Shown here: positions 1,985-50,191 of the stretch, piece by piece
Layout of the letters: every line of letters begins with the position of its first letter
Numbering within the stretch: position 1 is the first letter of the stretch
IMG/VR virus record: IMGVR_UViG_3300021197_001319
Span: 1 to 60,226 of that record
Reading direction: 5' to 3' (one strand)
DNA: 60,226 nucleotides
Source: a virus
Position numbers and translations under genes: made by a program
Notes under the pieces: model-generated
The model's input: the letters and a program-made list of their open reading frames with translations, nothing else
Database searches by the model: none
What the model was told of the DNA's origin: nothing

Positions 1985-3162
1985 TAATCTTCTCTAGGTT
2001 TAAGTGCATCACTTAGTGACTGTCTACTTGTTGCAGTAGTATTATCATCTGCAGTAAACGTGCTTGTGTTATTGATAAATCCGTCTCTCTGTGTATTTCC
2101 TGTGCCTGGTGTAAGTTTACTGCGTACATCATCTTCTACTTTAATCCAACGTGATCCGCTGTATCTAAACAATCTATTAGGTAAAAAGTCTAAGCGTAGT
2201 ATATAATCACCTTCTTGACTGTCACTCGGAAAACTTGTTCCCATACTAATTGGTTCACCATTTGGTGCTAATCCATCACCTACTAGATACCCACTGTAGG
2301 CATTAGCATTTTGTGGTGTAATACGTCTTGCATCTGCAGTTGCGTCTGTGTTATCTGCATTAAGGGCTGTATTATCTGCATTAACTCCCTTGGACTCAAG
2401 AGGGTTACCTGTTGGATCTGTAGGTACAATATAGTACTGACTTGTGTCGTAACCGCTTTCAGGCACTTCCTTTTCAGCGGCAGCAACAACTTTATTTGTT
2501 ATCTCTAGTTCTTTGTTATAGGTACTTAGCAAGTCACGAAGTGTACTTTCGGTTGGATTTCCGTCTGCATCTTCTTGTATTATGTTAAGTATATCATTGT
2601 ATTCTTGTGCATCTACCAGTGGTGTACACTTAATACGCCACAGGTGTCCCCACCAAGTTGGACTAAATCCCTCACTTGGGCGACTTCCTTCTTGCACTAC
2701 ATAGTAGCGTTTTAGACTAAGTTCTACACTTTCATCCAATGCTGCAAAGTCTGTTAGATGTGGCAATTCAATTACATCACCACTCATAAGTTTGCGTCCT
2801 AGATTGTTGACCATATCATTTTCGTGGAACGTTATAAAAAGTGTATCATTAGCAAGGAACAATCCAAACTGTGATAAGTCAAAGTCTGTATCACTTACGC
2901 TATATATGCCACGAAGATTGTACACATCCTGGTCATATATTCTATCTCTATTTTCTAAAAATAAAAAATCCTGTATTCCTAGTGGATCAGGTGTGCTTTG
3001 ATTTGGTTGACTTGGATCACTTCCGCCTTGACTAGCAATACCTAGATACTTGTGTACATTTACACCAGTGCCACCTATAGTAAACATTTCTTTCATTCTT
3101 CTGTCGAAGAAACGATAATCGTTGGTGTGAGCACCATCTTTCCATAAACTTATTCTTGGCAT
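1984..3162 (-). CDS. gp14: Neck protein gp14-like
   Basis: A 392-residue protein opening with MPRISLW, then YRFFDRRMKEMF, then GGTGVNVHKYLG. This is the signature start of T4-family gp14, a neck protein that, with gp13, closes the filled head and receives the tail. T4 gp14 is about 256 residues, so this one is extended. A low-complexity stretch with two NADNT units and a C-terminal RLFRYSGSRWIKVED motif make up the addition. The start has AAGGAA upstream in a 20-base leader, and a late box GATAAATA on the minus strand lies at 3183-3190. It is divergent from the Smr gene and cotranscribed with gp15. Confidence 0.9.
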   Translation of the reverse strand: MPRISLWKDGAHTNDYRFFDRRMKEMFTIGGTGVNVHKYLGIASQGGSDPSQPNQSTPDPLGIQDFLFLENRDRIYDQDVYNLRGIYSVSDTDFDLSQFGLFLANDTLFITFHENDMVNNLGRKLMSGDVIELPHLTDFAALDESVELSLKRYYVVQEGSRPSEGFSPTWWGHLWRIKCTPLVDAQEYNDILNIIQEDADGNPTESTLRDLLSTYNKELEITNKVVAAAEKEVPESGYDTSQYYIVPTDPTGNPLESKGVNADNTALNADNTDATADARRITPQNANAYSGYLVGDGLAPNGEPISMGTSFPSDSQEGDYILRLDFLPNRLFRYSGSRWIKVEDDVRSKLTPGTGNTQRDGFINNTSTFTADDNTTATSRQSLSDALKPRED

Positions 3163-3182
3163 GCCTATTCCTTGTTGCTCAG

Positions 3183-3190
3183 TATTTATC
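3183..3190 (-). promoter_or_regulatory. Late promoter box GATAAATA (minus strand)
   Basis: The T4 late consensus is TATAAATA; here GATAAATA reads on the minus strand 20 bases before the gp14 start, with a normal AAGGAA ribosome binding site between. It forms a divergent pair with the plus-strand box at 3194-3201, only three bases away. Confidence 0.7.
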
Positions 3191-3193
3191 GCT

Positions 3194-3201
3194 TATAAAT
3201 A
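3194..3201 (+). promoter_or_regulatory. Late promoter box TATAAATA, abuts start codon
   Basis: Perfect T4 late consensus. The ATG of the Smr gene begins 7 bases after its last A, close to where T4 late transcripts start, so the mRNA would be almost or wholly leaderless. Confidence 0.75.
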
Positions 3202-3207
3202 ACCTCA

Positions 3208-3435
3208 ATGAAACTAGACCTACACGGACATGATGTACACACTGCATGGCGAATATTTAATAGTCGTTTAACAGATGCGTACTACGAAAAGCAAAGTACT
3301 GTTATAGTTATTACTGGGCAGGGTGCTATTATGCACGAGTTTCAAACATGGTGTGGTCAACATCCATACATAAAAAGTTGGACAAATGCGCCACATAATC
3401 CAGGAAGTTACAAAATATCTCTCAAAAAAGGTTGA
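3208..3435 (+). CDS. Small MutS-related (Smr) domain protein
   Basis: A 75-residue protein that is essentially a single Smr domain. LDLHG at residues 3-7 is the first Smr motif, and ITGQG at 35-39 matches the second (usually (H/T)G(K/R)G). Smr domains are DNA- or RNA-nicking endonucleases or nucleic-acid binders, found alone or at the C-terminus of MutS2. Here the domain is minimal and stands alone. It is driven by the late box at 3194-3201, so it is predicted to be expressed with virion genes, where a nick- or branch-processing role before packaging is possible. That role is inference. Confidence 0.75.
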   Translation: MKLDLHGHDVHTAWRIFNSRLTDAYYEKQSTVIVITGQGAIMHEFQTWCGQHPYIKSWTNAPHNPGSYKISLKKG

Positions 3436-3459
3436 CACATTCTCAAAAGGTGCTATATT
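3432..3459 (+). promoter_or_regulatory. Early-type promoter, family copy 1
   Basis: TTGACA (3432-3437), 16-base spacer, TATATT (3454-3459), followed by AATATAGTAAGTTG and a GAGGAGAGA ribosome binding site at 3479-3487. The same arrangement recurs at 42405, 43003, 44870, 47565 and 48458. Confidence 0.8.
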
Positions 3460-3493
3460 AATATAGTAAGTTGATGTTGAGGAGAGATACATT

Positions 3494-3709
3494 ATGGTTA
3501 GTAACACAAAGTTTAAAGATTTCGTTGTAGCACTTAGCGCAGAAGATCAGCAAACAGTTGTTGATAGACAGTTGCGCTTGCTTCCTGCATTTATTATGCA
3601 AGAAGTTGCTACTACTAATAATGCTAAAGTCATTCGCAAGTTAGAGAGCCGCTTGAAGCAGGTTCGCTTGATGTTGTCCTCTATTATTGCTAACGGAAAG
3701 GTTGTGTAA
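3494..3709 (+). CDS. Hypothetical small protein, early-type
   Basis: A 71-residue protein of unknown function, mainly helical, with a basic C-terminal half (KVIRKLESRLKQVRLML). No family recognised. It is the first gene behind an early-type promoter of the repeated family and has a strong GAGGAGAGA ribosome binding site seven bases before the ATG. It overlaps the next start by one base, so it heads a short operon with the 61-residue protein and the 383-residue protein. Confidence 0.7.
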   Translation: MVSNTKFKDFVVALSAEDQQTVVDRQLRLLPAFIMQEVATTNNAKVIRKLESRLKQVRLMLSSIIANGKVV

Positions 3710-3894
3710 TGAACGAAATATTAAATGATATTGAAACACTTACTATTGTAAGAAATGCAGTAAGTACAGGTGTTGAAAAAGAAAAAACAATCGAGTTATT
3801 GGACAAAGTGATACGACTTAAATCACTTGAGATAACTAACTTTGAAGCACAAATGGAAATGGAGTTTATGAACGATGGCATTAACCGCTCTTAA
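3709..3894 (+). CDS. Hypothetical small helical protein
   Basis: A 61-residue, acidic, helical protein with heptad-like leucines and isoleucines (IELLDKVIRLKSLEI), possibly a short coiled coil. Not recognised. Its ATG overlaps the stop of the preceding gene (TAATG) and its end overlaps the next gene by 20 bases, which shows translational coupling in a three-gene operon. Confidence 0.6.
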   Translation: MNEILNDIETLTIVRNAVSTGVEKEKTIELLDKVIRLKSLEITNFEAQMEMEFMNDGINRS

Positions 3895-5026
3895 AGGTAA
3901 ACCAGTCAAGCGTAAAAAAGCAGCCAAGGCTCGCCGTAAAACTACTGGCGCCGGCGCCGCCCCTCTGGACAACTACAAAGTTGCCAAGGACTTCTTTCAC
4001 TTTGATGTAGATAAGAAGGAATATGTGCCTATTATCAGACAGTATGTAAAAAAGTTTTACGATAAAAAGACTGCAACATACATTCTGAAAAATAGTGATG
4101 CTAGTATGGCATTTAGTCATATTGCTTGTTACTGTCATTACATGAATAATGATAAGGCAGATCAAATTCCTGAGGACAGTCACAATTGGATGTCAGGTAG
4201 ATTTGGTGCTCTTGCAGAAAAAGGTGAGTCTATTGTTGAAGAAGTCAAAGCAGTAGAAGCAACAAAGCCTAAGAACGTTTACGTTCCTAGCATCCAAGAG
4301 CGTATCAAGGAAGCAAGTGGCAACATTATTGCTGAGATTGAGGAAGTAGTTGACGACTTTATTGACAACCCTAATACCTTTAAGGGACTTGATCCTGTTA
4401 AACTGTTCCGTAAACTAAATGTGAATCAAGCACATGCTAGGCATATCCGTGCTTTTTATGAAGGTGCTTATGCAGAGTATGCTATGCTACAGCAACCTGC
4501 TCGTGAACAAGAAGAAGATTTGCGAGAAGCATATGCACACTTGGACAAAGCGGCAGTGAAACGTGCAGTGACACTGTTTGGTGGCATCCTAGGGGCGTGT
4601 GATCTTATTACAGCAGAAAGCAAAGCAACTCGTAAAACTAGATCACCCAAGCCTAAGAGTGCTGACAAGTTGGTTGCAAAAATGAAGTATTGTAAAACCG
4701 ACGAAAAGTATAAAGTAGCAAGCATTAATCCAGCGGATGTAATAGATGCTACGGAAGTTTGGGTGTTTAATGTTAAGACACGCAAGATCGGTAAGTATGT
4801 TGCAGAACCACATGCTACACTGCAAGTTAAAGGTACTACGCTTCAGTTTTTTGATGTAAAGCAAAGTATTGCAAAAACACTGCGTAAGCCAGAGCAACAA
4901 CTAACAGACTTTAACAAGAGTGGCAAAGTCCAATTACGCAAGTTCTTAGACAATATCAAGGGCGTAGAAACAAAAATGAACGGACGCTTTAATGCTGATA
5001 CTGTGATCCTTAAAGCAGTAAAGTAA
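3875..5026 (+). CDS. Conserved-type phage protein of unknown function, basic N-terminus
   Basis: A 383-residue protein. Residues 1-25 are highly basic (KGKPVKRKKAAKARRK) and followed by a GAGAA linker, like a nucleic-acid-binding tail. The rest is mixed alpha/beta with no catalytic motif that I recognise. The ATG lies inside the preceding gene with GGAG ten bases upstream. Its place between early-type small genes and gp13 does not settle a role. DNA-associated or structural roles are both possible. The DNA coding the linker (3948-3962) is an unusually GC-rich run in an AT-rich genome. Confidence 0.75.
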   Translation: MALTALKGKPVKRKKAAKARRKTTGAGAAPLDNYKVAKDFFHFDVDKKEYVPIIRQYVKKFYDKKTATYILKNSDASMAFSHIACYCHYMNNDKADQIPEDSHNWMSGRFGALAEKGESIVEEVKAVEATKPKNVYVPSIQERIKEASGNIIAEIEEVVDDFIDNPNTFKGLDPVKLFRKLNVNQAHARHIRAFYEGAYAEYAMLQQPAREQEEDLREAYAHLDKAAVKRAVTLFGGILGACDLITAESKATRKTRSPKPKSADKLVAKMKYCKTDEKYKVASINPADVIDATEVWVFNVKTRKIGKYVAEPHATLQVKGTTLQFFDVKQSIAKTLRKPEQQLTDFNKSGKVQLRKFLDNIKGVETKMNGRFNADTVILKAVK

Positions 5027-18238: not shown

Positions 18239-18246
18239 CATAAATA
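18239..18246 (+). promoter_or_regulatory. Late promoter box CATAAATA, abuts start codon
   Basis: The ATG of the next gene starts six bases after the box, predicting a leaderless late mRNA. Confidence 0.65.
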
Positions 18247-18251
18247 CACAT

Positions 18252-29819: not shown

Positions 29820-29834
29820 TTGTATTTTAAAACC

Positions 29835-29842
29835 TATAAATA
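29835..29842 (+). promoter_or_regulatory. Late promoter box TATAAATA, abuts start codon
   Basis: Perfect late consensus; ATG begins six bases after the box at 29848, with no room for a ribosome binding site. Confidence 0.75.
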
Positions 29843-29847
29843 GTTAT

Positions 29848-42432: not shown

Positions 42433-42462
42433 AAAGAGTAAGTTGGAAATGAGGAGAGACTA

Positions 42463-42807
42463 ATGCAACAGCAAATTGAAACATTGATCCAAGATATTGT
42501 TAATGATTATGACATTTGGCAGAATATTTGTGCTAAAGGTGAGCCAAAAAGCAGTGTGCAAAATGATATGTTTGATCGTTTTAAGTCACGCATTGACTTT
42601 AAAGAAGGTAAAAAGTATATCAAAATCTTTACTGAAGGCGGAAGCGTTTGGGGATTTGTTGTTAACACTGATAAAGATAACAAGTTTCGCAAAGGCGATA
42701 TCCTTAAGGCAGCAGGCTGGAACGCTCCTGCTCGCAACGCCGCACGTGGTAACATCCTAGATGGTGGCTACAAAATCCAGTGGACAGGTCCACTTTACTT
42801 AAAATAG
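42463..42807 (+). CDS. Conserved phage protein, unknown function, early-type
   Basis: A 114-residue basic protein. The C-terminal half ([20 protein letters not shown] and [20 protein letters not shown]) recurs in marine phages of several types as I remember them, always without known role. The dense Arg/Lys/Gly segment suggests nucleic-acid or ribosome contact, which is speculation. Strong GAGGAGAGA ribosome binding site and family promoter. It leads a two-gene unit with the AT-hook protein. Confidence 0.75.
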
Positions 42808-42816
42808 GAGACTATA

Positions 42817-42999
42817 ATGATGGTTATGGATAAACAAGAGCAAGCGGCATATGATGCAGCAATGGCTGAATATTTCGCTAAAGGCGGCAAAGTAACTACT
42901 TGCCCTGTTAATGAGCGCACTGAAGGCTTGGTAACAAACATCTGGAAGCGCGGACCTGGTCGTCCTAAAAAGGCGGATGCAGAAAAAAGTGAAGAATAA
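42817..42999 (+). CDS. AT-hook microprotein
   Basis: A 60-residue protein whose C-terminal half contains KRGPGRPKK, a canonical AT-hook (GRP core flanked by basic residues) that binds the minor groove of AT-rich DNA. The N-terminal half (KQEQAAYDAAMAEYFAKGGK) is a short helix plus turn. With an AT-rich host genome, it could coat or silence DNA or alter transcription early in infection; this is inference. TAGGAG precedes the ATG, nine bases after the previous stop. Confidence 0.75.
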   Translation: MMVMDKQEQAAYDAAMAEYFAKGGKVTTCPVNERTEGLVTNIWKRGPGRPKKADAEKSEE

Positions 43000-43002
43000 A
43001 GG

Positions 43003-43030
43003 TTGACATAATCTGTATTCGTGCTATGTT
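43003..43030 (+). promoter_or_regulatory. Early-type promoter, family copy 3
   Basis: TTGACA (43003-43008), 16-base spacer, TATGTT (43025-43030), then TAATAGTAAGTTG and GAGGAGAGAG at 43049-43058. It starts two bases after the AT-hook stop. Confidence 0.85.
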
Positions 43031-43060
43031 TAATAGTAAGTTGTTTTTGAGGAGAGAGAT

Positions 43061-43435
43061 ATGCCCCAGATTTTTTCAGTTTTCCAGATTGTTATTGACA
43101 AAGACCTTAGTGATCTTATCAACAAAGAAGGTCACCGTTGTCATGTAAAGAGCCTGGCTCGTTTGGAAGCGATGATGGACGGCGATGTGCGTCTTGGTAT
43201 AATGCATGATTGTTATACTAAGGTAGCAAAAGTTGTTGCTGATGATCTGGAGCATGTGTTTGAAGTTGGAAACATTGGTCCTGAGGATCGTATTACACGA
43301 CTGGACAAGATGCACAGCATCAGCGTTGGAGACATTATTGCAGATGCAGATGGCAACTGTAGTGTAGTTTGTAATGTTGGATTTACTCCACTTGCACAAT
43401 CATTTCATAGACTGTTATCCAAGGAGTTAGCATAA
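43061..43435 (+). CDS. Conserved phage protein, unknown function, early-type
   Basis: A 124-residue alpha/beta protein (MPQIFSVFQIVIDKD, later DKMHSISVGDIIADADGNCS). The SxSVGD(I/V)I turn is a recurring element of small phage and plasmid proteins of unknown role. GAGGAGAGAG ribosome binding site with three bases to the ATG. It leads the operon of tiny genes that runs to 44873. Confidence 0.7.
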   Translation: MPQIFSVFQIVIDKDLSDLINKEGHRCHVKSLARLEAMMDGDVRLGIMHDCYTKVAKVVADDLEHVFEVGNIGPEDRITRLDKMHSISVGDIIADADGNCSVVCNVGFTPLAQSFHRLLSKELA

Positions 43436-43608
43436 TGTTGTTATATGAGGTTTATTTAATTAATCAGCGTTACACATGTGGTGCATATAAAACCTTAGAG
43501 CAGGCTATTAAAATGGCTCGCAAGACTGGTTTTCAGTGCAACATATTTCGTGCAAACGATCCTTTTACAATTATTAAAACTATTTGCCCAATTGGAGGTA
43601 CACGATGA
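43435..43608 (+). CDS. Tiny hypothetical protein
   Basis: A 57-residue protein (MLLYEVYLINQRYTCGAYKT), with an ATG that overlaps the upstream stop (TAATG) and a TGA that overlaps the next ATG. Fits a small alpha/beta fold with a basic helix (LEQAIKMARKTGF). Not recognised. Confidence 0.55.
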   Translation: MLLYEVYLINQRYTCGAYKTLEQAIKMARKTGFQCNIFRANDPFTIIKTICPIGGTR

Positions 43609-43739
43609 TTAAGTTTTATGTATTAGCCGCAATTGGTGCGGGTATGGCAGCGGCAGCAGATTCAATTTTTCTTTTGTTTCTTACAACTGCGGTTGTTCTT
43701 TTATTGTTAATGCGGGAGCAAAATATCAATGGAAATTAA
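43605..43739 (+). CDS. Tiny membrane protein
   Basis: A 44-residue hydrophobic protein with one or two membrane segments (VLAAIGAGMAAAADSIFLLF and TTAVVLLLLM). ATG overlaps the previous stop as ATGA, GGAGG eight bases upstream. It overlaps the following membrane gene by 11 bases. Confidence 0.5.
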   Translation: MIKFYVLAAIGAGMAAAADSIFLLFLTTAVVLLLLMREQNINGN

Positions 43740-43920
43740 ACTAACAGACGCTGGCACATTTGAATTGCTGTATGATAAGTTAGATGTTTTTATTCATTTG
43801 CTTGCATTTGGTTTTGCAATTGCCCTAGTTGTTACAGTGGTAATTGCAAGTGTTCGTTTGGGCTGGAAACTTTGGCCCTGGGTACTTGGGCTAGGACTAC
43901 TAGCGTTTTTGATTACATGA
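43729..43920 (+). CDS. Small membrane protein, two segments
   Basis: A 63-residue protein with two predicted membrane helices, about residues 22-42 (HLLAFGFAIALVVTVVIASV) and 48-62 (LWPWVLGLGLLAFLI), joined by a short basic loop. Not recognised. Overlaps both neighbours, ATGA at the 3' end. Belongs to a group of four membrane microproteins here that may alter the host envelope. Confidence 0.6.
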   Translation: MEIKLTDAGTFELLYDKLDVFIHLLAFGFAIALVVTVVIASVRLGWKLWPWVLGLGLLAFLIT

Positions 43921-44090
43921 GGCGCGGTGTAGCAAAAGATCCCAGTGAATATATTAAAATTCGCATCGGACAATTAATAGATGAATCAAACAAGTGTCAT
44001 GATCCGCATGACGCACAATGGTACAATAGATGCGCTGAAGAACTGCATTGGGTACTTAAAATGATGGAGAATAAAGATGGAACCAGTTGA
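43917..44090 (+). CDS. Tiny soluble protein
   Basis: A 57-residue charged protein (MRRGVAKDPSEYIKIRIGQL) with a HDPHDAQWYNRC segment containing several potential metal ligands (His, Asp, Cys). ATG overlaps the upstream stop. Not recognised. Confidence 0.5.
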   Translation: MRRGVAKDPSEYIKIRIGQLIDESNKCHDPHDAQWYNRCAEELHWVLKMMENKDGTS

Positions 44091-44265
44091 TCCCAGCAAG
44101 AAGCATTTTTACATTAGTCTTGTAAAAAGTGCGCTACGTTTGGTAGGCTGTTACTTACTTTGGAGTGCAGGTTATGTAATGGATGACATTGCAGGTGTGT
44201 TTGTTATGTATACGGCATATGCACTAGGTGCTGCCGAAGTGCTAGGTATTGTAGAGGAACTCTAA
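44077..44265 (+). CDS. Small membrane protein
   Basis: A 62-residue protein with one or two membrane segments (LRLVGCYLLWSAGYVMD and IAGVFVMYTAYALGAAEVLG) after a short soluble N-terminus. Overlaps the upstream gene by 14 bases and the next start by one base. Not recognised. Confidence 0.55.
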   Translation: MEPVDPSKKHFYISLVKSALRLVGCYLLWSAGYVMDDIAGVFVMYTAYALGAAEVLGIVEEL

Positions 44266-44477
44266 TGGGACCTTATAGTGATTATGCACAACAGAAACGT
44301 GCAGAGCGGATTGCCAGTGTACTTCTAAACTGCAAGGACGAAGATGCAAAACGGATTTGGCGTCTGCATCTAGCAAACTTGTCAAACAATGAAACAGACT
44401 ATAACGCTCGTGTTGTAGAAATGTATGGAGAGAAAAAATGGAACCAGTATATTGGTATGGTCTTGCCTACATCATAG
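44265..44477 (+). CDS. Small helical protein
   Basis: A 70-residue charged helical protein (SDYAQQKRAERIASVLLNCK). Not recognised. Its ATG overlaps the upstream stop and its last 40 bases overlap the next membrane gene in another frame. Confidence 0.5.
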   Translation: MGPYSDYAQQKRAERIASVLLNCKDEDAKRIWRLHLANLSNNETDYNARVVEMYGEKKWNQYIGMVLPTS

Positions 44478-44662
44478 GCACAGTCATGGGTCTTTACTTT
44501 GGTAAAAGATATGGCATGGGATTAGGAATACTTGCTACTCTTGAAACACTAGTAGAAGGCGGCTATTTAAAAACTCGCAAAACAGATGATGGCGAACTTG
44601 ATCTTATTAAACTTACATTTGAGGAGCGGTTAGATGACACTGCCAAAACAAAAGATTGTTAA
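44438..44662 (+). CDS. Small membrane-anchored protein
   Basis: A 74-residue protein with one N-terminal membrane segment (YWYGLAYIIGTVMGLYFG) and a charged cytoplasmic tail. GGAG precedes the ATG. Overlaps both neighbours by 40 and 29 bases. Not recognised. Confidence 0.5.
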   Translation: MEPVYWYGLAYIIGTVMGLYFGKRYGMGLGILATLETLVEGGYLKTRKTDDGELDLIKLTFEERLDDTAKTKDC

Positions 44663-44873
44663 CTTTGGTCCAGATTACAAACTAAGCATTGTAGACGAAG
44701 TTAATCAAGCGGATAAATTTGAACTTGCTGTATTCTATAAAGGTAACATGATAAGCATGCCAGGTATTACTGATAATGGTGATACTGTAACACGGTTTAG
44801 AACAATAAGCGATGTACAAATGATTATGAAAAAAATGTATTCATTGACAAGAGAATTGCCCGAAAACGGTTGA
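44634..44873 (+). CDS. Small hypothetical protein
   Basis: A 79-residue protein of mixed strands (MTLPKQKIVNFGPDYKLSIV), ending at the next promoter. GAGGAG lies a few bases upstream of the ATG. Not recognised. Last gene of the tiny-gene operon. Confidence 0.55.
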   Translation: MTLPKQKIVNFGPDYKLSIVDEVNQADKFELAVFYKGNMISMPGITDNGDTVTRFRTISDVQMIMKKMYSLTRELPENG

Positions 44874-44897
44874 CACATTCTGTATCCATGCTATGTT
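44870..44897 (+). promoter_or_regulatory. Early-type promoter, family copy 4
   Basis: TTGACA (44870-44875) begins inside the preceding stop codon region; 16-base spacer, TATGTT (44892-44897), then TAATAGTAAGTTG and AAGGAG before ATG 44928. Confidence 0.85.
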
Positions 44898-44927
44898 TAA
44901 TAGTAAGTTGTTTTTAAGGAGATGTAA

Positions 44928-45128
44928 ATGGGTATGTCAAGTTATGTTTTCGACAGTGAAGAAAAGATGTTCGATGTTATTGAACAAGCAATTGGAAATT
45001 GTGAACATCTAACTGATGTAATGGCTGAGGCTGTTAAAGAAAAGGATCTTGTGCCACATTGGAGTGTACAAGAAATTGAAGATTGTTGCAGTGAAGCCTG
45101 GGAAGAATATTGGGCAAGCAAAATATAG
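44928..45128 (+). CDS. Small acidic protein, early-type
   Basis: A 66-residue acidic helical protein (SYVFDSEEKMFDVIEQAIGN), with two Cys in EIEDCCSEAW. Not recognised. Acidic early proteins of phages often inhibit host enzymes, but there is no direct sign of this here. Family promoter and AAGGAG ribosome binding site. Confidence 0.6.
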   Translation: MGMSSYVFDSEEKMFDVIEQAIGNCEHLTDVMAEAVKEKDLVPHWSVQEIEDCCSEAWEEYWASKI

Positions 45129-45137
45129 GAGAATAAA

Positions 45138-45455
45138 ATGTATTCAAAAGAACTTGAAAATGCATTAAATGCAATGAGAGCAATTACTGATACATCAGAT
45201 ATGCATGTATTGGCAAGCGAGTACAATAAACACGTTACGTTTCTCGGCAAGCGCAAAGGCGCCGGCATTATCAAAGGCGACAAGATTGCCTGGGAGTATG
45301 GTGGTTTGCAAAAGGTTGGTATTGTAACTAAAGTTAACCGCAAGACCATTGAAGTGCAGAACTACGGTAACACACCGTTTGGTGCAACACGCACACGCTT
45401 GGACAAGTCAATGATCCTTGGCAAAGTTCCTGAATCAACAGATACATTTGCATAA
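45138..45455 (+). CDS. Small basic protein with SH3-like strand pattern
   Basis: A 105-residue protein. The N-terminal helix pair is followed by GDKIAWEYGGLQKVGIVTKVNRKTIEVQNYG, which reads like a small beta-barrel (SH3/KOW-like) that could bind nucleic acid. Not assigned to a family. AGGAG before the ATG; overlaps the next start by one base. Confidence 0.55.
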   Translation: MYSKELENALNAMRAITDTSDMHVLASEYNKHVTFLGKRKGAGIIKGDKIAWEYGGLQKVGIVTKVNRKTIEVQNYGNTPFGATRTRLDKSMILGKVPESTDTFA

Positions 45456-45643
45456 TGGCACATGCTAGTGAAATTATCGAAACACGAGGACACCCATTTG
45501 TGGGTGTTCAGTGGTCCATCACAGGTAGCAAGGGCGATGCATACACAGTCGAAATGACTGAATATGGATTTGAATGTAACTGTGTAGCATGGCGTAAATG
45601 CAAACACATTAAAGGTGTTGAAGAGCGATTTAGTGACACATAA
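45455..45643 (+). CDS. SWIM-type zinc-finger microprotein
   Basis: A 62-residue protein ending in FECNCVAWRKCKHIKGVEERF. The CxC-x(n)-CxH arrangement is that of SWIM zinc fingers, which bind DNA or proteins. The upstream strand SKGDAYTVEMTEYG fits the beta-hairpin that usually precedes it. Could act as a small transcription or recombination accessory. ATG overlaps the upstream stop. Confidence 0.65.
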   Translation: MAHASEIIETRGHPFVGVQWSITGSKGDAYTVEMTEYGFECNCVAWRKCKHIKGVEERFSDT

Positions 45644-46643
45644 ACATTGGACTACTATTGTTAGAGAAGTTTTCCCCAGAGCAGAAATATTAGATGCTGC
45701 TCTGGCTTATCCTATTACGGACTATGGTTGGGATGTAAATGTTCCTCGCAATACAACTTTTTGTAACTTCGAGGATCCACAGTATAGATTAGTGATTAAT
45801 TTACAGGACATGCTAACTCGTTACGAGGATCACCGTGTGCCTGGTGAACTTACTAAACTACATCAGCATTTTAGTAAAAATCATTTTCCCATGGATCAGA
45901 TTATTGTATTGATATGGCCCTTGGGTATTAAAAAAGACTGGTCCAAGGACAGTTTTCATTTAATTGAATTTAGCAGTCATCAGTATGAGACTTGGTGTAG
46001 TTACAAAGACTCAGAAGATGAGTTGCGTGAAGCGTTTAGCAGAGAACATAAAGACTTTGAATATAACTTTGTTTGTCCACAGCGCATATACAAGCCACAT
46101 CGTGCAGCCTTGGATAGCATGCTAGAGATAGGCAATGTAAGTTTACAAACAAAGGGTATAGAACTAATGTATCCTAGTTTAAGTGTTAAAGAGTATGATG
46201 ACACCTATGATAATCTTGCTAACCTATTAGCAATGCGTAAGAACTATAACACTGCACTGTTTACTATTGTTAGTGAAACTCAGTACACAGAAGAATTTGG
46301 TATCATTAGTGAAAAAACTTTTAATGCTATTGTAGCAGGACATCCGTTTTTGATGTGTGCGCATCAGTATGCGCTGGAGCATGTTCGTCATTATGGATTC
46401 GAAACCTACAATTATATTTTTGATGAATCATATGATGACCTAGACAATGTTATTCGTATGAAGGACATGGTGAATAGCAACTGGCACTTTACACAGGAAC
46501 GCATGAGTGCAGTAGAGATGCAGAAAATTTTTGAGGATCTGCAGGGGTTAATTAACTACAACAGAGATTACTTCTTTGATCAATTTGGTAACCAAATGAT
46601 TGACGAATTAAGAATGGATTTGTTAGATCTTTGGGGAAAGTAA
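45633..46643 (+). CDS. Glycosyltransferase-like protein A of a paralogous pair
   Basis: A 336-residue protein. The segment LFTIVSETQYTEEFGIISEKTFNAIVAGHPFLM resembles the (S/T)EK(T/V)(F/W)...G.P motif of fucosyltransferase- and exostosin-like GT-B enzymes. I choose GTG 45633 (MTHKHW), overlapping the SWIM gene by 11 bases; a TTG at 45615 would add six residues. It overlaps its paralogue downstream. Early-type promoter control differs from the late glycosyltransferases of the main cassette. Confidence 0.55.
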   Translation: MTHKHWTTIVREVFPRAEILDAALAYPITDYGWDVNVPRNTTFCNFEDPQYRLVINLQDMLTRYEDHRVPGELTKLHQHFSKNHFPMDQIIVLIWPLGIKKDWSKDSFHLIEFSSHQYETWCSYKDSEDELREAFSREHKDFEYNFVCPQRIYKPHRAALDSMLEIGNVSLQTKGIELMYPSLSVKEYDDTYDNLANLLAMRKNYNTALFTIVSETQYTEEFGIISEKTFNAIVAGHPFLMCAHQYALEHVRHYGFETYNYIFDESYDDLDNVIRMKDMVNSNWHFTQERMSAVEMQKIFEDLQGLINYNRDYFFDQFGNQMIDELRMDLLDLWGK

Positions 46644-47563
46644 ATTTAAAATTTGGTCAGCGAGGATCTAGTGTAGCAGAATACATGCAGTTATTGCACG
46701 AGATCGAATTGGTCGATGATATAAAAAGCAATACGCTGTTGTGTCACAGAGACGATCCTATTTTAACTGAACAAACGGGCAATCTATCTACGTTTGATCA
46801 TATTATAGTAGAAGACTGGTTTGGTATTGACGACGATCATAATGACAAAATTCATTTATTTGATTATCCTAATGTTACATTTTGCACCACTAATATGCAA
46901 AAAAATAATTTAGTGCATGCCAGTACCGTACATTATAATTTTATGTTTAATAGAACTAAATTAGTTTACGATGAAGAATTTCCTATTAAACGTAACAATA
47001 AAAAGTTTTTCCTATTGTTAACCAACAGTACAGGAGAAAACTATAAAAAAGTAAAATATAACGCAGATAGATCATCGGACTTTTTGTTTCTCAATGCTCG
47101 CAGACAAACAACTGAAAGATTACAAACGCAACAAGTATTGCATGGTTTAAACGGGATAGTGTCAACTAAAAATAACTTGTTGCCCGGCGATGTTAATATG
47201 CCTTACAACCCTGTGCCTGCAGAACATTGGGAAAGTTGTTATTTCAATATTGCAATCGAAAGTAATATAAAAAATGCGGATATTGTGCATACCACTGAAA
47301 AAGTTTGGGAACCTATTATCAAGTACCAAATACCTATTATACTTGCAACCGCACACTATCAGGCATATATGGAAAGTTTAGGATTTGTATTTCCGATAAA
47401 AGTCTTTACAGAACCAGATGAATACTACAATTTTTTAACAGAGTTTTTTAGCGGCAACCCTCGCAAGTTTTTTCTTTCACATGAGGATGAAGTTAGGCAT
47501 AATCACAATTTATTTTTTGATTTACCTATAGACACCGGTGTAGAACAGATATGGGCAAAATAG
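46631..47563 (+). CDS. Glycosyltransferase-like protein B of a paralogous pair
   Basis: A 310-residue protein with a TTG start at 46631 inside the previous gene. SCYFNIAIESNIKNADIVHTTEKVWEPIIKYQIPIILA matches the same motif as gene A (here TTEKVWEPI), followed by YMESLGF. N-terminal regions differ. Predicted GT-B transferase, sugar unknown. Ends directly at the next family promoter. Confidence 0.55.
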   Translation: MGKVNLKFGQRGSSVAEYMQLLHEIELVDDIKSNTLLCHRDDPILTEQTGNLSTFDHIIVEDWFGIDDDHNDKIHLFDYPNVTFCTTNMQKNNLVHASTVHYNFMFNRTKLVYDEEFPIKRNNKKFFLLLTNSTGENYKKVKYNADRSSDFLFLNARRQTTERLQTQQVLHGLNGIVSTKNNLLPGDVNMPYNPVPAEHWESCYFNIAIESNIKNADIVHTTEKVWEPIIKYQIPIILATAHYQAYMESLGFVFPIKVFTEPDEYYNFLTEFFSGNPRKFFLSHEDEVRHNHNLFFDLPIDTGVEQIWAK

Positions 47564-47564
47564 G

Positions 47565-47592
47565 TTGACATATCTCTATAGTGTGCTATGTT
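47565..47592 (+). promoter_or_regulatory. Early-type promoter, family copy 5
   Basis: TTGACA (47565-47570), 16-base spacer, TATGTT (47587-47592), then TAAGAGTAAGTTG and AAGGAG before a TTG start at 47623. Confidence 0.85.
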
Positions 47593-47622
47593 TAAGAGTA
47601 AGTTGTTTTTAAGGAGTAACCA

Positions 47623-47922
47623 TTGGCATTACCTAGACAAAAAAGAAATTGGGATCAACATGCAGCCTTGTTGTTTATGGAAAACCTAAACATGATGGTG
47701 CCCTACTATTTAATGGCTAGTTATGCTTACTATAAACAAGACGATCCTATCTTTAGTGATGCGTTTTTTGATAACATGGGCAAGACAATGCTGGAACGCT
47801 GGGACGACATTGCGCATTTTCACAAGGAATATATTAACAAAGGTGACCTAGAAGCAGGCACATTTCTAGGAGAATATCCTAGTAGAGTTGAAGGCGCACT
47901 GCGTAGTTTAAGGAACACATAA
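47623..47922 (+). CDS. Small hypothetical protein
   Basis: A 99-residue protein with a TTG start, chosen because AAGGAG lies at the right distance and no ATG occurs nearby. It reads LPRQKRNWDQHAALLFMENL and later FFDNMGKTMLERWDDIAHFHKEY, helical and rich in aromatic residues. Not recognised. One-base overlap with the exonuclease gene, so probably coexpressed with it. Confidence 0.6.
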   Translation: MALPRQKRNWDQHAALLFMENLNMMVPYYLMASYAYYKQDDPIFSDAFFDNMGKTMLERWDDIAHFHKEYINKGDLEAGTFLGEYPSRVEGALRSLRNT

Positions 47923-48461
47923 TGGCTATACATGGTATGATAGACTTGGAAACGCTGGGAACTACTGCAGATACAGTAATACTTACTGTGGGTGCAATCA
48001 AGTTTGATCCGCTTACAGATGCACTGCCCTATGCAGACATGTATCACAGGCTCGATGTAGATCAACAAACCGCGCTGGGGCGCACAGTTGATGACAGCAC
48101 AATAGAGTGGTGGGGTAAACAGGATGCAGAGATCTGGGAGGAAGCACTGGGCGATGACAATCGTGTTGACGTTGATGACTTTATTAGAGATCTGCAAAAG
48201 TGGGTAGTGGGTGTAGACGTAATATGGGCTCAGGGATATGGATTTGATATTACAATATTGGATCATTTGCTACTGAGCAAGGGACATAACCTGCCCTGGA
48301 ACTTTTGGAACGTGCGTGATAGCCGCACACTGTTTCAACTTATGCCAAAAGATCCTCGCAAAGCACTAAACTTTGCCGCACACAATGCACTGGAAGATTG
48401 TCGTGCGCAGGCTAAGTGTGTACAGTATTGCTATCGAGAATTAGGCATAATAAAAGGTTGA
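47922..48461 (+). CDS. dexA: DnaQ-like 3'-5' exonuclease, DexA type
   Basis: A 179-residue DEDDh exonuclease: motif I GMIDLETLG (D8, E10), motif II WAQGYGFDITILDHLL with Asp, and motif III AAHNALEDCRAQA with His and Asp. The order and the length fit the phage DexA/oligoribonuclease-like group that degrades host DNA 3' to 5' or proofreads. The position behind an early-type promoter agrees with host-DNA breakdown. The symbol follows the T4 gene of similar type and is tentative. Confidence 0.82.
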   Translation: MAIHGMIDLETLGTTADTVILTVGAIKFDPLTDALPYADMYHRLDVDQQTALGRTVDDSTIEWWGKQDAEIWEEALGDDNRVDVDDFIRDLQKWVVGVDVIWAQGYGFDITILDHLLLSKGHNLPWNFWNVRDSRTLFQLMPKDPRKALNFAAHNALEDCRAQAKCVQYCYRELGIIKG

Positions 48462-48485
48462 CACATCTGTTTAAGATGTTATTAT
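48458..48485 (+). promoter_or_regulatory. Early-type promoter, family copy 6
   Basis: TTGACA (48458-48463), 16-base spacer, TATTAT (48480-48485), then AAGAGAGTAAGTTA and GGAGAGAG at 48513-48520 before ATG 48523. It overlaps the end of the exonuclease gene. Confidence 0.8.
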
Positions 48486-48522
48486 AAGAGAGTAAGTTAA
48501 ACAAATGATGTTGGAGAGAGAC

Positions 48523-49557
48523 ATGTCATACGTTCTAGTAAAAAGCGGAGAGTACAGGAACCGCACAGTAGAGAATACTGTTTTCCCTGTTATTAAGAAT
48601 TTTCAGTTTGGCGCAAACGGCGGATACATTACAGTTGATGGGTCAAGTGTTTTTGGTGCGGAATTTCCAAAAGTACGCATAAAGACTACACAAGATCAAC
48701 TGGATTTCGTTGGACAAGATGTTTTCAATAAACAAGAAAACGTTAAGGTCGAGGTTGCTGCCTCTTCTACATTCACAGAAGCACAAGACAAGCAACGCAT
48801 GGGTGAGATTAGCCAGCGTTTTGAGATACTTGATCAAATGACCAAGTCGCTTGTTGCTAGTGATATTCGTGCGCTAATTGTTACTGGACCTCCTGGTGTT
48901 GGTAAGAGTTATGGCGTAGAAGAAGAACTTAGTAAAAGTTCGCTTTTCGGAGATATGACCAATCAGAAGCGCAAGTATGAAGTAGTAAAGGGTGCAATGA
49001 CTGCACTAGGACTTTACGCCAAACTATATGAGTACAGTGCTAAAGGCAACGTGCTTGTGTTTGATGACTGTGACAGTGTATTAATGGATGACCTCGCACT
49101 GAACATTCTTAAGGCTGCACTTGATAGTGGCAAGAAGCGTATGATATACTGGAACGCAGAGTCTAACAAGTTGCGTAATGAAGGTATTCCGGATAAGTTT
49201 GAGTTTAAGGGCAGTGCTTGCTTTATTACTAACATTAAATTTGAGAATGTTAAGAGCAAGCGATTACAAGATCACCTAGAAGCATTGCAGTCACGCTGTC
49301 ACTACTTGGATCTCACACTGGATACTATGCGTGATAAGATCCTGCGTGTAAAGCAGATTGCGGCAGTTGGTGATTTGTTCAAGGACTACAGCATGGACAT
49401 GCAACAGGAAGCCGAGATAGTAGACTTTATGGCTGAGAACTGTAACAAGTTTCGCGAAGTTAGTTTGCGTATGGCACTTAAGGTTGCAGACCTAATGAAA
49501 ATTAGTCCTAACAACTGGCGTGCTCTAGCAGAAAGCACTTGTATGAAACGTTTATAA
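48523..49557 (+). CDS. AAA+ ATPase
   Basis: A 344-residue protein. Walker A GPPGVGKS at residues 122-129, Walker B NVLVFDDCDSV around 176-186, a sensor-1 type ACFITN, and C-terminal helical lid. The N-terminal 110 residues are a separate domain with GGYITVDG strands. Phage AAA+ proteins of this type are common in marine myoviruses but have no settled role; remodelling of DNA-bound or host complexes is likely. I choose ATG 48523 because GGAGAGAG lies directly before it; earlier ATGs at 48505 and 48508 precede that site. Confidence 0.82.
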   Translation: MSYVLVKSGEYRNRTVENTVFPVIKNFQFGANGGYITVDGSSVFGAEFPKVRIKTTQDQLDFVGQDVFNKQENVKVEVAASSTFTEAQDKQRMGEISQRFEILDQMTKSLVASDIRALIVTGPPGVGKSYGVEEELSKSSLFGDMTNQKRKYEVVKGAMTALGLYAKLYEYSAKGNVLVFDDCDSVLMDDLALNILKAALDSGKKRMIYWNAESNKLRNEGIPDKFEFKGSACFITNIKFENVKSKRLQDHLEALQSRCHYLDLTLDTMRDKILRVKQIAAVGDLFKDYSMDMQQEAEIVDFMAENCNKFREVSLRMALKVADLMKISPNNWRALAESTCMKRL

Positions 49558-49561
49558 GTTT

Positions 49562-49643
49562 TTGGGCCGCGACCCTCTCTCCTCTCTCTCCTCCAATCGC
49601 GGCACCAAAGAGCGGGCAGTTTAGAAATAGACTGCCCGCTCAC
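49562..49643 (+). ncRNA. Candidate structured RNA with anti-Shine-Dalgarno loop
   Basis: After the AAA+ gene, a seven-pair stem (GCCGCGA 49566-49572 with TCGCGGC 49597-49603) encloses a loop of 22 pure pyrimidines (49573-49594). Within the loop the decamer CTCTCTCCTC occurs twice (49575-49584 and 49584-49593); it is exactly complementary to GAGGAGAGAG, the ribosome binding site at 43049-43058, and nearly so to those at 3479, 42451 and 48513. A second, eleven-pair hairpin follows at 49610-49641. It would be made as the 3' end of the AAA+ transcript. That it acts as a regulator in trans or on its own mRNA is inference. Confidence 0.45.
49610..49641 (+). terminator. Strong hairpin, probable transcript end
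   Basis: Eleven-pair stem GAGCGGGCAGT with ACTGCCCGCTC and a ten-base loop. Only scattered T residues follow (CACTATTTGTT), so it may stabilise a processed 3' end more than terminate by itself. Confidence 0.6.
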
Positions 49644-49650
49644 TATTTGT

Positions 49651-49661
49651 TATAATAAATA
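49651..49661 (+). promoter_or_regulatory. TATAAT/AATAAATA double box before SGNH copy 4
   Basis: TATAAT at 49651-49656 overlaps the late-type box AATAAATA at 49654-49661. ATG 49664 lies eight bases after the TATAAT but only three after the late box, so the sigma70-type reading fits a start at the ATG better. No clear -35. Confidence 0.4.
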
Positions 49662-49663
49662 TT

Positions 49664-50191
49664 ATGAAAACACTTTACACAATAGGCGATAGTTTTACTT
49701 ACGGCGATGAACTAGACGATCCCAAGCATGCGTGGCCCTATATATTAGGTGATCTAATGGGATATCGTGTAGACAATCTCGCTCGTAATGGCGCCAGTAA
49801 CGATTATATAGTTAAAACTACAGTTGAATATCTACAATCAAATACTCCTGACTTAGTCATATTAGCATGGACAACGCCTGATAGAATAGATATAGGTGGT
49901 AAAACTGCTACAGTAAATCATGATCCTATTATATTCAAACGCTGGAACGAAGACTGGGCACGAGAAAAATTACAGACACAAATTAATCTAATGGAAAAAT
50001 ATGTCCTTAAGGACTATAATAATTTTCACTGCGCAACTTGGATAGACGATGATTATTTCAAGGGCATGCAAAACTACATTGGAAAATTTGTTGAATGGGT
50101 AGACGGCACACCACATGGTATTTGCGGACATCCACTAGAACTAGGACATCAAAGGATATCAGACAAAATTGCTGAATACATCAGAAATTAA
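49664..50191 (+). CDS. SGNH/GDSL-hydrolase-like protein, copy 4
   Basis: A 175-residue protein with the classical block I TIGDSFTYGDEL (Ser11 as nucleophile), ARNGASND as the Asn block, VILAWTTPDRID in the middle, and CGHPLELGHQRISDKI at the end with His. It is closest to copy 5 directly downstream: the two share block I, the mid-block and the TPHG..GHPLE(L/Q)GH end. Acyl hydrolase or transferase. Same-strand overlap of 23 bases with copy 5. Confidence 0.75.
   Translation: MKTLYTIGDSFTYGDELDDPKHAWPYILGDLMGYRVDNLARNGASNDYIVKTTVEYLQSNTPDLVILAWTTPDRIDIGGKTATVNHDPIIFKRWNEDWAREKLQTQINLMEKYVLKDYNNFHCATWIDDDYFKGMQNYIGKFVEWVDGTPHGICGHPLELGHQRISDKIAEYIRN

What the first reader, a model, noticed from the sequence alone, without database searches (positions are those of the whole stretch)
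49562..49643. Hairpin RNA with a 22-base pyrimidine loop complementary to the phage's own ribosome binding sites
Seen: between the AAA+ gene and the next SGNH gene, a stem (49566-49572 with 49597-49603) presents a pure C/U loop, 49573-49594, containing CTCTCTCCTC twice. GAGGAGAGAG at 43049-43058 is its exact complement, and the sites at 3479-3487, 42451-42459 and 48513-48520 match over 8-9 bases. A second strong hairpin closes the RNA. Known: alphaproteobacterial and other sRNAs use C/U-rich loops to mask Shine-Dalgarno sequences. Inference: the RNA, released from the 3' end of the AAA+ mRNA, could switch off the early small genes as a set, including its own parent mRNA.
Basis: partly seen in the sequence, partly recalled or inferred. 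Interest (0 to 1): 0.78.

Follow-up and report, generated by a model that had tools for sequence, protein, structure and literature searches.

The report
Phage 3'UTR RNA complementary to RBSs
Downstream of one early phage gene lies a conserved RNA element that matches, letter for letter, the ribosome binding site of that same gene, and the two have changed together across dozens of phage lineages, so this looks like a self-limiting RNA brake, which in this phage's lineage probably also acts on other early genes.

Summary
The hairpin with a pure C/U loop exists on the + strand. In 22 relatives, 19 of 24 base pairs show compensatory changes, with G·U pairs on the + strand (57 versus 6). In 60 kb the only four sites of 9 nt or more that complement the loop (besides itself) are four RBSs: 3479, 42451, 43049 and 48513. 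The last belongs to the AAA+ gene just upstream.

The larger result lies outside the given coordinates. Across 112 non-redundant relatives of the AAA+ gene (phrog_1250; T4 homologue nrdC.10), the stretch just after the stop codon tends to complement that gene's own RBS, in at least a dozen different sequence pairs. Own pairs beat swapped pairs (7.54 versus 6.00 nt; best of 5000 permutations 6.46). The effect is absent for 1479 genes of all kinds and for control regions.

Best explanation: a 3'UTR-encoded antisense-to-RBS RNA that represses its own mRNA, like Vibrio OppZ/CarZ. In the window's lineage the likely targets include other early genes (22/70 versus 0/42 in relatives without the loop). 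Pairing is strongly supported by coevolution; a released small RNA, rather than cis pairing, is inferred. No transcript data.

The parts
49561..49609 (+). hairpin 1: 12-bp stem with one bulged A (49604) that displays the C/U loop
   Evidence: fold; 10 pairs modelled for this stem, every one with compensatory changes in 22 relatives; G-U on the + strand
49573..49594 (+). anti-RBS seed: 22-nt pyrimidine loop CCCTCTCTCCTCTCTCTCCTCC
   Evidence: conserved in relatives while the stem sequence changes
49610..49641 (+). hairpin 2: 14-bp stem with GAAA loop, no U-run behind it in this lineage (U-run present in L005 and L007)
48523..49557 (+). parent AAA+ gene, 344 aa (phrog_1250; T4 nrdC.10 homologue)
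   Evidence: AAA+ fold
48513..48521 (+). RBS of the AAA+ gene, GGAGAGAGA, 9-nt complement of the loop
48458..48485 (+). early sigma70-like promoter of the AAA+ gene (TTGACA, 16 nt, TATTAT)
   Evidence: read from sequence; same layout in relatives
43049..43059 (+). putative trans target: RBS GAGGAGAGAGA (11 nt) of early gene 43061-43435
42451..42459 (+). putative trans target: RBS GAGGAGAGA of early gene 42463-42807
3479..3487 (+). putative trans target: RBS GAGGAGAGA of early gene 3494-3709
49628..49656 (+). promoter-like TAGACT-N17-TATAAT overlapping the 3' arm of hairpin 2; places a start at or next to the ATG of the SGNH gene (49664)
   Evidence: sequence; layout recurs in L001, L003, L006, L013, L022

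Best explanation
The element is the local version of an antisense-to-RBS RNA encoded in the 3' untranslated region of a phage early AAA+ gene (phrog_1250 / nrdC.10-like). Its seed base-pairs with the Shine-Dalgarno region of the AAA+ mRNA and blocks ribosome binding, so the gene limits its own translation. In many lineages the seed is a short stretch 0-40 nt after the stop codon, followed by a hairpin and a U-tailed terminator. In the window's lineage it is held open in a hairpin as a pyrimidine loop. There several early small genes carry the same extended RBS, so the RNA most likely also damps them in trans as a set. Shown: the structure, its strand and conservation; coevolution of seed and own RBS; early-gene enrichment. 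Inferred: physical pairing, repression, release as a separate small RNA.
For: Covariation: 19/24 pairs with compensatory change, score 0.574 versus 0.266 shuffled; slid structures drop from 94% to about 40% paired. + strand RNA: G-U 57 versus A-C 6. One strong copy per record, always behind AAA+, although the downstream gene differs. Seed-RBS coevolution over 112 loci: own 7.54 versus swapped 6.00 nt, best of 5000 permutations 6.46. One locus per 70% cluster: z = 5.6, P <= 0.001; duplex energy z = -10.9; CDS-end, mid-CDS and same-sense controls flat. Without the whole C/U lineage z = 13. Different pairs: GGAGAGAG/CTCTCTCC, GGAGGAGCAA/TTGCTCCTCC, GGAGCGAA/TTCGCTCC, AGGAGTAA/TTACTCCT, AGGAGCTAA/TTAGCTCCT, TAACGGAGTA/TACTCCGTTA, TGTTGAAAGGCT/AGCCTTTCAACA, AGAGAGGTT/AACCTCTCT. 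Matches of 8 nt or more start mostly 9-14 nt before the start codon and, in 54 of 61, within 40 nt of the stop. 1479 genes of all kinds show no effect (5.67 versus 5.66). Seeds are more often unpaired than their surroundings (0.62 versus 0.41, P = 5e-7). Early genes other than AAA+: 22/70 in phages with the loop, 0/42 in relatives without.
Against: No transcript or protein data. In the window's lineage hairpin 2 has no U-run, so the RNA's 3' end is unknown. Some members have no match (L023, L028, L040, L188, L237), and T4-group isolates show none. The own-versus-other-loop test for the trans targets alone is inconclusive because the loops are too similar. Within the C/U lineage alone the own-pair excess is modest (z about 2.5), for the same reason. 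Related loci are not fully independent.
Confidence: 0.72

Rival explanations
1. The 3' element acts only in cis: it pairs with the RBS of the same mRNA molecule about 1 kb upstream, closing the mRNA into a loop and masking or tuning its own start site; no separate small RNA exists.
For: In several lineages the AAA+ gene is the only gene start with the matching RBS, and the coevolution is with that gene.
Against: The C/U lineage has the same extended RBS on several other early genes. Many members look like ordinary small RNAs (seed, hairpin, U-tailed terminator 35-60 nt on). For OppZ, long-distance intramolecular pairing was excluded by experiment (PMC7398697).
Confidence: 0.2
2. The C/U loop is a generic mimic of the 16S anti-Shine-Dalgarno tail that binds any purine-rich RBS, or the match is only what purine-rich RBSs give.
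For: The loop contains CUCC/CCUCC, and the GGAG core is shared by many RBSs.
Against: The complement extends into lineage-specific bases outside the core (GCAA, CGAA, UAAC, CUAA, and the non-GGAG pair TGTTGAAAGGCT), and own pairs beat swapped pairs. Early genes of relatives without the loop do not carry the extended RBS (0/42).
Confidence: 0.05
3. The hairpins are only transcription terminators or 3'-end stabilisers, or a binding site for a protein such as Rho or another pyrimidine-binding factor; the RBS match is a by-product.
For: Terminator-like hairpins follow the seed in many lineages, and C/U-rich single strands are good Rho-binding sequence (general knowledge).
Against: Protein or terminator function does not explain why the seed tracks the RBS letter by letter, nor why other genes of these phages show no such match.
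Confidence: 0.05

Closest known systems
OppZ and CarZ: autoregulatory 3'UTR-derived small RNAs of Vibrio cholerae (Hoyos et al. 2020, PMC7398697)
   Same: Regulator encoded in the 3'UTR of the mRNA it represses; base pairing with that transcript inhibits translation; negative feedback without a protein regulator.
   Different: Here in phage genomes, with a seed that has turned over together with the RBS across many lineages. In the window's lineage the seed is displayed in a closed hairpin loop and likely serves several early genes. RNase E processing and Hfq dependence are untested.
Cuckoo / CcsR small RNAs of Alphaproteobacteria
   Same: C/U-rich loops that resemble an anti-Shine-Dalgarno sequence (my knowledge), in RNAs processed from the 3' part of a protein-coding transcript (PMC10253847).
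   Different: Different gene context (DUF1127 ccaF1 operon, RpoH promoter) and no Rfam match here; here the seed coevolves with the RBS of the upstream gene.
Known phage small RNAs (OOP, PreS, VpdS and others; review PMC12197685)
   Same: Phage-encoded RNAs that control phage or host mRNAs by base pairing.
   Different: The described ones are mostly antisense or Hfq small RNAs of temperate phages; the passages read report no 3'UTR autoregulator coevolving with its own RBS.

Membership tests
3'UTR-derived autoregulatory small RNA (OppZ/CarZ kind) | encoded in the 3'UTR of the mRNA it targets | tested here: met
   always directly after the AAA+ stop codon
3'UTR-derived autoregulatory small RNA (OppZ/CarZ kind) | seed complementary to the translation start region of its own mRNA, conserved as pairing | tested here: met
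   own versus swapped, with controls
3'UTR-derived autoregulatory small RNA (OppZ/CarZ kind) | Rho-independent terminator at the 3' end | tested here: inconclusive
   U5 run about 35-60 nt after the seed in many other lineages and a U-run in L005/L007; absent behind hairpin 2 in the window
3'UTR-derived autoregulatory small RNA (OppZ/CarZ kind) | release by RNase E and Hfq-dependent action in trans | not testable with these tools
   needs RNA from infected cells and host mutants
3'UTR-derived autoregulatory small RNA (OppZ/CarZ kind) | inhibits translation of its own mRNA | not testable with these tools
   needs reporter assays
Cuckoo / CcsR small RNAs | match to a described RNA family in Rfam 15 | tested here: not met
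   no match at gathering score; weak chance matches only
Cuckoo / CcsR small RNAs | co-transcribed with a DUF1127 (ccaF1-like) gene | tested here: not met
   neighbours are AAA+ and SGNH, ferredoxin-like or other genes
Generic anti-Shine-Dalgarno mimic | pairs equally with any Shine-Dalgarno sequence | tested here: not met
   own pairs exceed swapped pairs in length and energy

The most novel reading that the evidence does not exclude
A widespread and previously undescribed phage regulatory RNA: the 3' end of the early AAA+ mRNA yields a small RNA whose seed is kept complementary to its own RBS while both are repeatedly rewritten in evolution. In one lineage it has been built into a dedicated pyrimidine-loop hairpin that acts as a shared off-switch for a set of early genes carrying the same extended RBS.
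Probability: 0.5. Interest if true: 0.85.

Novelty: new variant of a known kind. Interest (0 to 1): 0.77.

Why it matters
RNA-based feedback from a gene's own 3' end is known from a few bacterial operons. Here it appears as a conserved property of one early gene across many environmental phage lineages, with evolution having run the compensatory-mutation experiment about a dozen times. If true, it gives a sequence-readable rule for finding such circuits without transcript data (does the 3'UTR complement the gene's own RBS?), and a mechanism by which phages could shut early genes down at the translational level. It also gives a first handle on an AAA+ family (T4 nrdC.10) of unknown function, by implying that its dose must be limited.

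Tried and rejected
Rfam at gathering score and at relaxed E-value: no family. Loop pattern scans of viral contigs: beyond the AAA+ loci mostly unrelated C/T-rich sequence. General property of all genes in these phages: rejected, 5.67 versus 5.66 over 1479 genes. Same-sense repeat, end of CDS and mid-CDS as the source of the match: rejected. Matching in T4-group isolates: none in T4, 44RR, AbTZA1, Vibrio and other phages looked at; PA5oct shows an 8-nt match (AGTAGCAT) that may be chance. Trans-target coevolution by own-versus-other loops: inconclusive. A second shared early RBS (AAGGACCAA) as target of a similar RNA: no complementary hairpin element was recognised among the occurrences listed. 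Bacterial genome contigs: 19 AAA+ relatives, mostly distant; L257 (70% identity over its best segment) has no matching element. Literature searches found no description of this element, but the library holds open-licence papers only, and the cuckoo family paper was not held.

Full report
WHAT IS THERE. The window is a 60 kb virus record of a myophage (tail sheath and terminase large subunit) that is far from any isolate. Its AAA+ protein is at best about 39% identical over most of its length to isolates (Pseudomonas phage PA5oct), and megablast of 16 kb against phage records found nothing. After the AAA+ gene (48523-49557) the + strand folds into a 12-bp stem (49561-49572 with 49597-49609, bulged A 49604). 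This stem displays CCCUCUCUCCUCUCUCUCCUCC (49573-49594), and a 14-bp second hairpin follows (49610-49641); folding z = -7.3. The finding's coordinates hold, with small corrections given in the observation check.

IT IS A CONSERVED RNA ON THIS STRAND. Sixty-six viral loci encode relatives of the AAA+ protein. In the nearer ones the same two hairpins follow the stop codon, with changed stems and a kept loop. On 22 sequences, 19 of 24 pairs show compensatory change; 94.3% of cells are paired versus 77.4% shuffled, and the covariation score is 0.574 versus 0.266. Sliding the partners by 1-3 columns drops pairing to 35-42%. G-U cells number 57 and A-C cells 6, so the structure is that of the + strand RNA. 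The covariance model finds one strong copy per record, always behind AAA+. In L009, L010, L024-L026 and L030 a second, diverged copy with loop CUCUCUCUUCUUC stands just before it. The downstream gene varies (SGNH, ferredoxin-like, other), so the element belongs to AAA+.

THE LOOP POINTS AT RBSs. In the whole window the only sites of 9 nt or more complementary to the loop, other than itself, are four RBSs: 3479 (9 nt), 42451 (9), 43049 (11) and 48513 (9, the AAA+ gene's own). Among 12 phages with the loop, genes behind the early promoter (TTGAC...TGNTA) carry a complement of 8 nt or more in 26/78 cases versus 22/924 for other genes. Leaving AAA+ out, it is 22/70 early genes, but 0/42 early genes in AAA+-bearing relatives without the C/U loop, P = 1e-5. 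The early/other split rests on my own promoter pattern and simple ORF calls, not on transcript data.

THE KEY RESULT: SEED AND OWN RBS COEVOLVE. Reading the AAA+ leaders beside the 3' regions shows changes on both sides. The GGAGAGAG/CUCUCUCC lineages give way to GGAGGAGCAA/UUGCUCCUCC (L013, L014, L022), GGAGCGAA/UUCGCUCC (L034-L061), AGGAGUAA/UUACUCCU (L018), AAGGAGCAA/UUGCUCCUU (L021), AGGAGCUAA/UUAGCUCCU (L191, L197), UAACGGAGUA/UACUCCGUUA (L242), UGUUGAAAGGCU/AGCCUUUCAACA (L210), AGAGAGGUU/AACCUCUCU (L254) and others. Over 112 non-redundant loci the longest exact complement between own RBS (-22 to -1) and the own 160 nt after the stop averages 7.54 nt, against 6.00 for swapped pairs and 5.65 for shuffled 3' regions; the best of 5000 permutations reached 6.46. 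With one random locus per 70%-identity cluster (16 clusters) it is 7.40 versus 5.75, P <= 0.001. Duplex energies give z = -10.9. Controls at the end of the CDS, mid-CDS and same-sense repeats are flat. Without the C/U lineage z = 13. The matches of 8 nt or more lie at the SD position and, in 54 of 61, within 40 nt of the stop codon. For 1479 genes of all kinds in 15 of these phages own equals swapped. The seeds are more accessible than their surroundings (0.62 versus 0.41 unpaired). Outside the window's lineage many are followed by a hairpin and a U-tailed terminator, the usual small-RNA layout.

MECHANISM. The simplest reading is negative feedback: the 3' end of the early AAA+ mRNA carries an antisense seed that covers the RBS of the same message. 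Whether it works as a released small RNA or in cis is not settled. For release: the extra early targets in the C/U lineage, the small-RNA layout, and the precedent of OppZ/CarZ, where intramolecular pairing was excluded experimentally (PMC7398697). For cis: in G019, G029 and G031 the AAA+ gene is the only gene start carrying the matching RBS core, and in G020 it carries the full own match at its start. In the window's lineage the 3' end is open: hairpin 2 has no U-run, and its 3' arm overlaps a TAGACT-N17-TATAAT promoter that would start the SGNH gene at or next to its ATG. In L005 and L007, where that promoter is absent, the same hairpin carries a U-run.

LIMITS. There are no RNA data. Members exist without a match (for example L023, whose AAA+ gene also lacks the early promoter layout seen in the others). 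The trans targets are supported by enrichment, not by own-versus-other coevolution. The AAA+ protein's function is unknown: it gives a generic AAA+ fold match (NorQ, clamp-loader and Orc types) and corresponds to T4 nrdC.10 by annotation of 44RR.

NOVELTY. The mechanism class is known from Vibrio; this member is not in Rfam, and no description was found in the searchable literature. What is new is its setting in phages, its spread, the repeated rewriting of the pair, and the likely widening to an early-gene set.

Noticed in passing
window 49628-49664: Promoter-like TAGACT-N17-TATAAT ends 7 nt before the ATG of the SGNH gene, which has no SD: the gene looks leaderless, and so would escape an anti-RBS RNA. 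The layout recurs in relatives.
   Followed up: partly
L009, L010, L024, L025, L026, L030 downstream of AAA+: Two tandem hairpins with different pyrimidine loops (CTCTCTCTTCTTC first, CTCCTCTCTCCTCTCTCCTCC second). In G014 a 674-aa ORF (L113:8890-10914, minus strand) has a 13-nt complement to the first loop (GAAGAAGAGAGAG) upstream of its start.
   Followed up: partly
L034-L061 downstream of AAA+: Repeated terminator-like hairpins with loop ATTCGCTCC, often two per locus, complementary to the AAA+ RBS GGAGCGAA. In a 183 kb record (G017) this hairpin occurs only behind AAA+.
   Followed up: yes
L144 (G008), L129 (G013), L108 (G014): A second shared early-gene RBS, AAGGACCAA[AG]CG or GGGACCAAGC, behind the same early promoter; no complementary RNA element was recognised.
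   Followed up: partly
L001, L003, L009, L010, L024, L060 just upstream of hairpin 1: A conserved AAAAATTTGAC[GA]G-like stretch 5-10 nt before the hairpin, with no -10 element at the right distance; role unknown.
   Followed up: no
window 42440-48520, early gene leaders: Several early leaders share GTAAGTTGTTTTT between the promoter and the RBS.
   Followed up: no
window 3190-3207, 18240-18251, 29830-29847: TATAAATA-like sequences upstream of genes, resembling T4-type late promoters.
   Followed up: no
L272 (PA5oct), AAA+ gene 2989-4143: 8-nt complement (AGTAGCAT) between the RBS region and the 3'UTR in an isolated phage, inside a hairpin; could be chance.
   Followed up: partly
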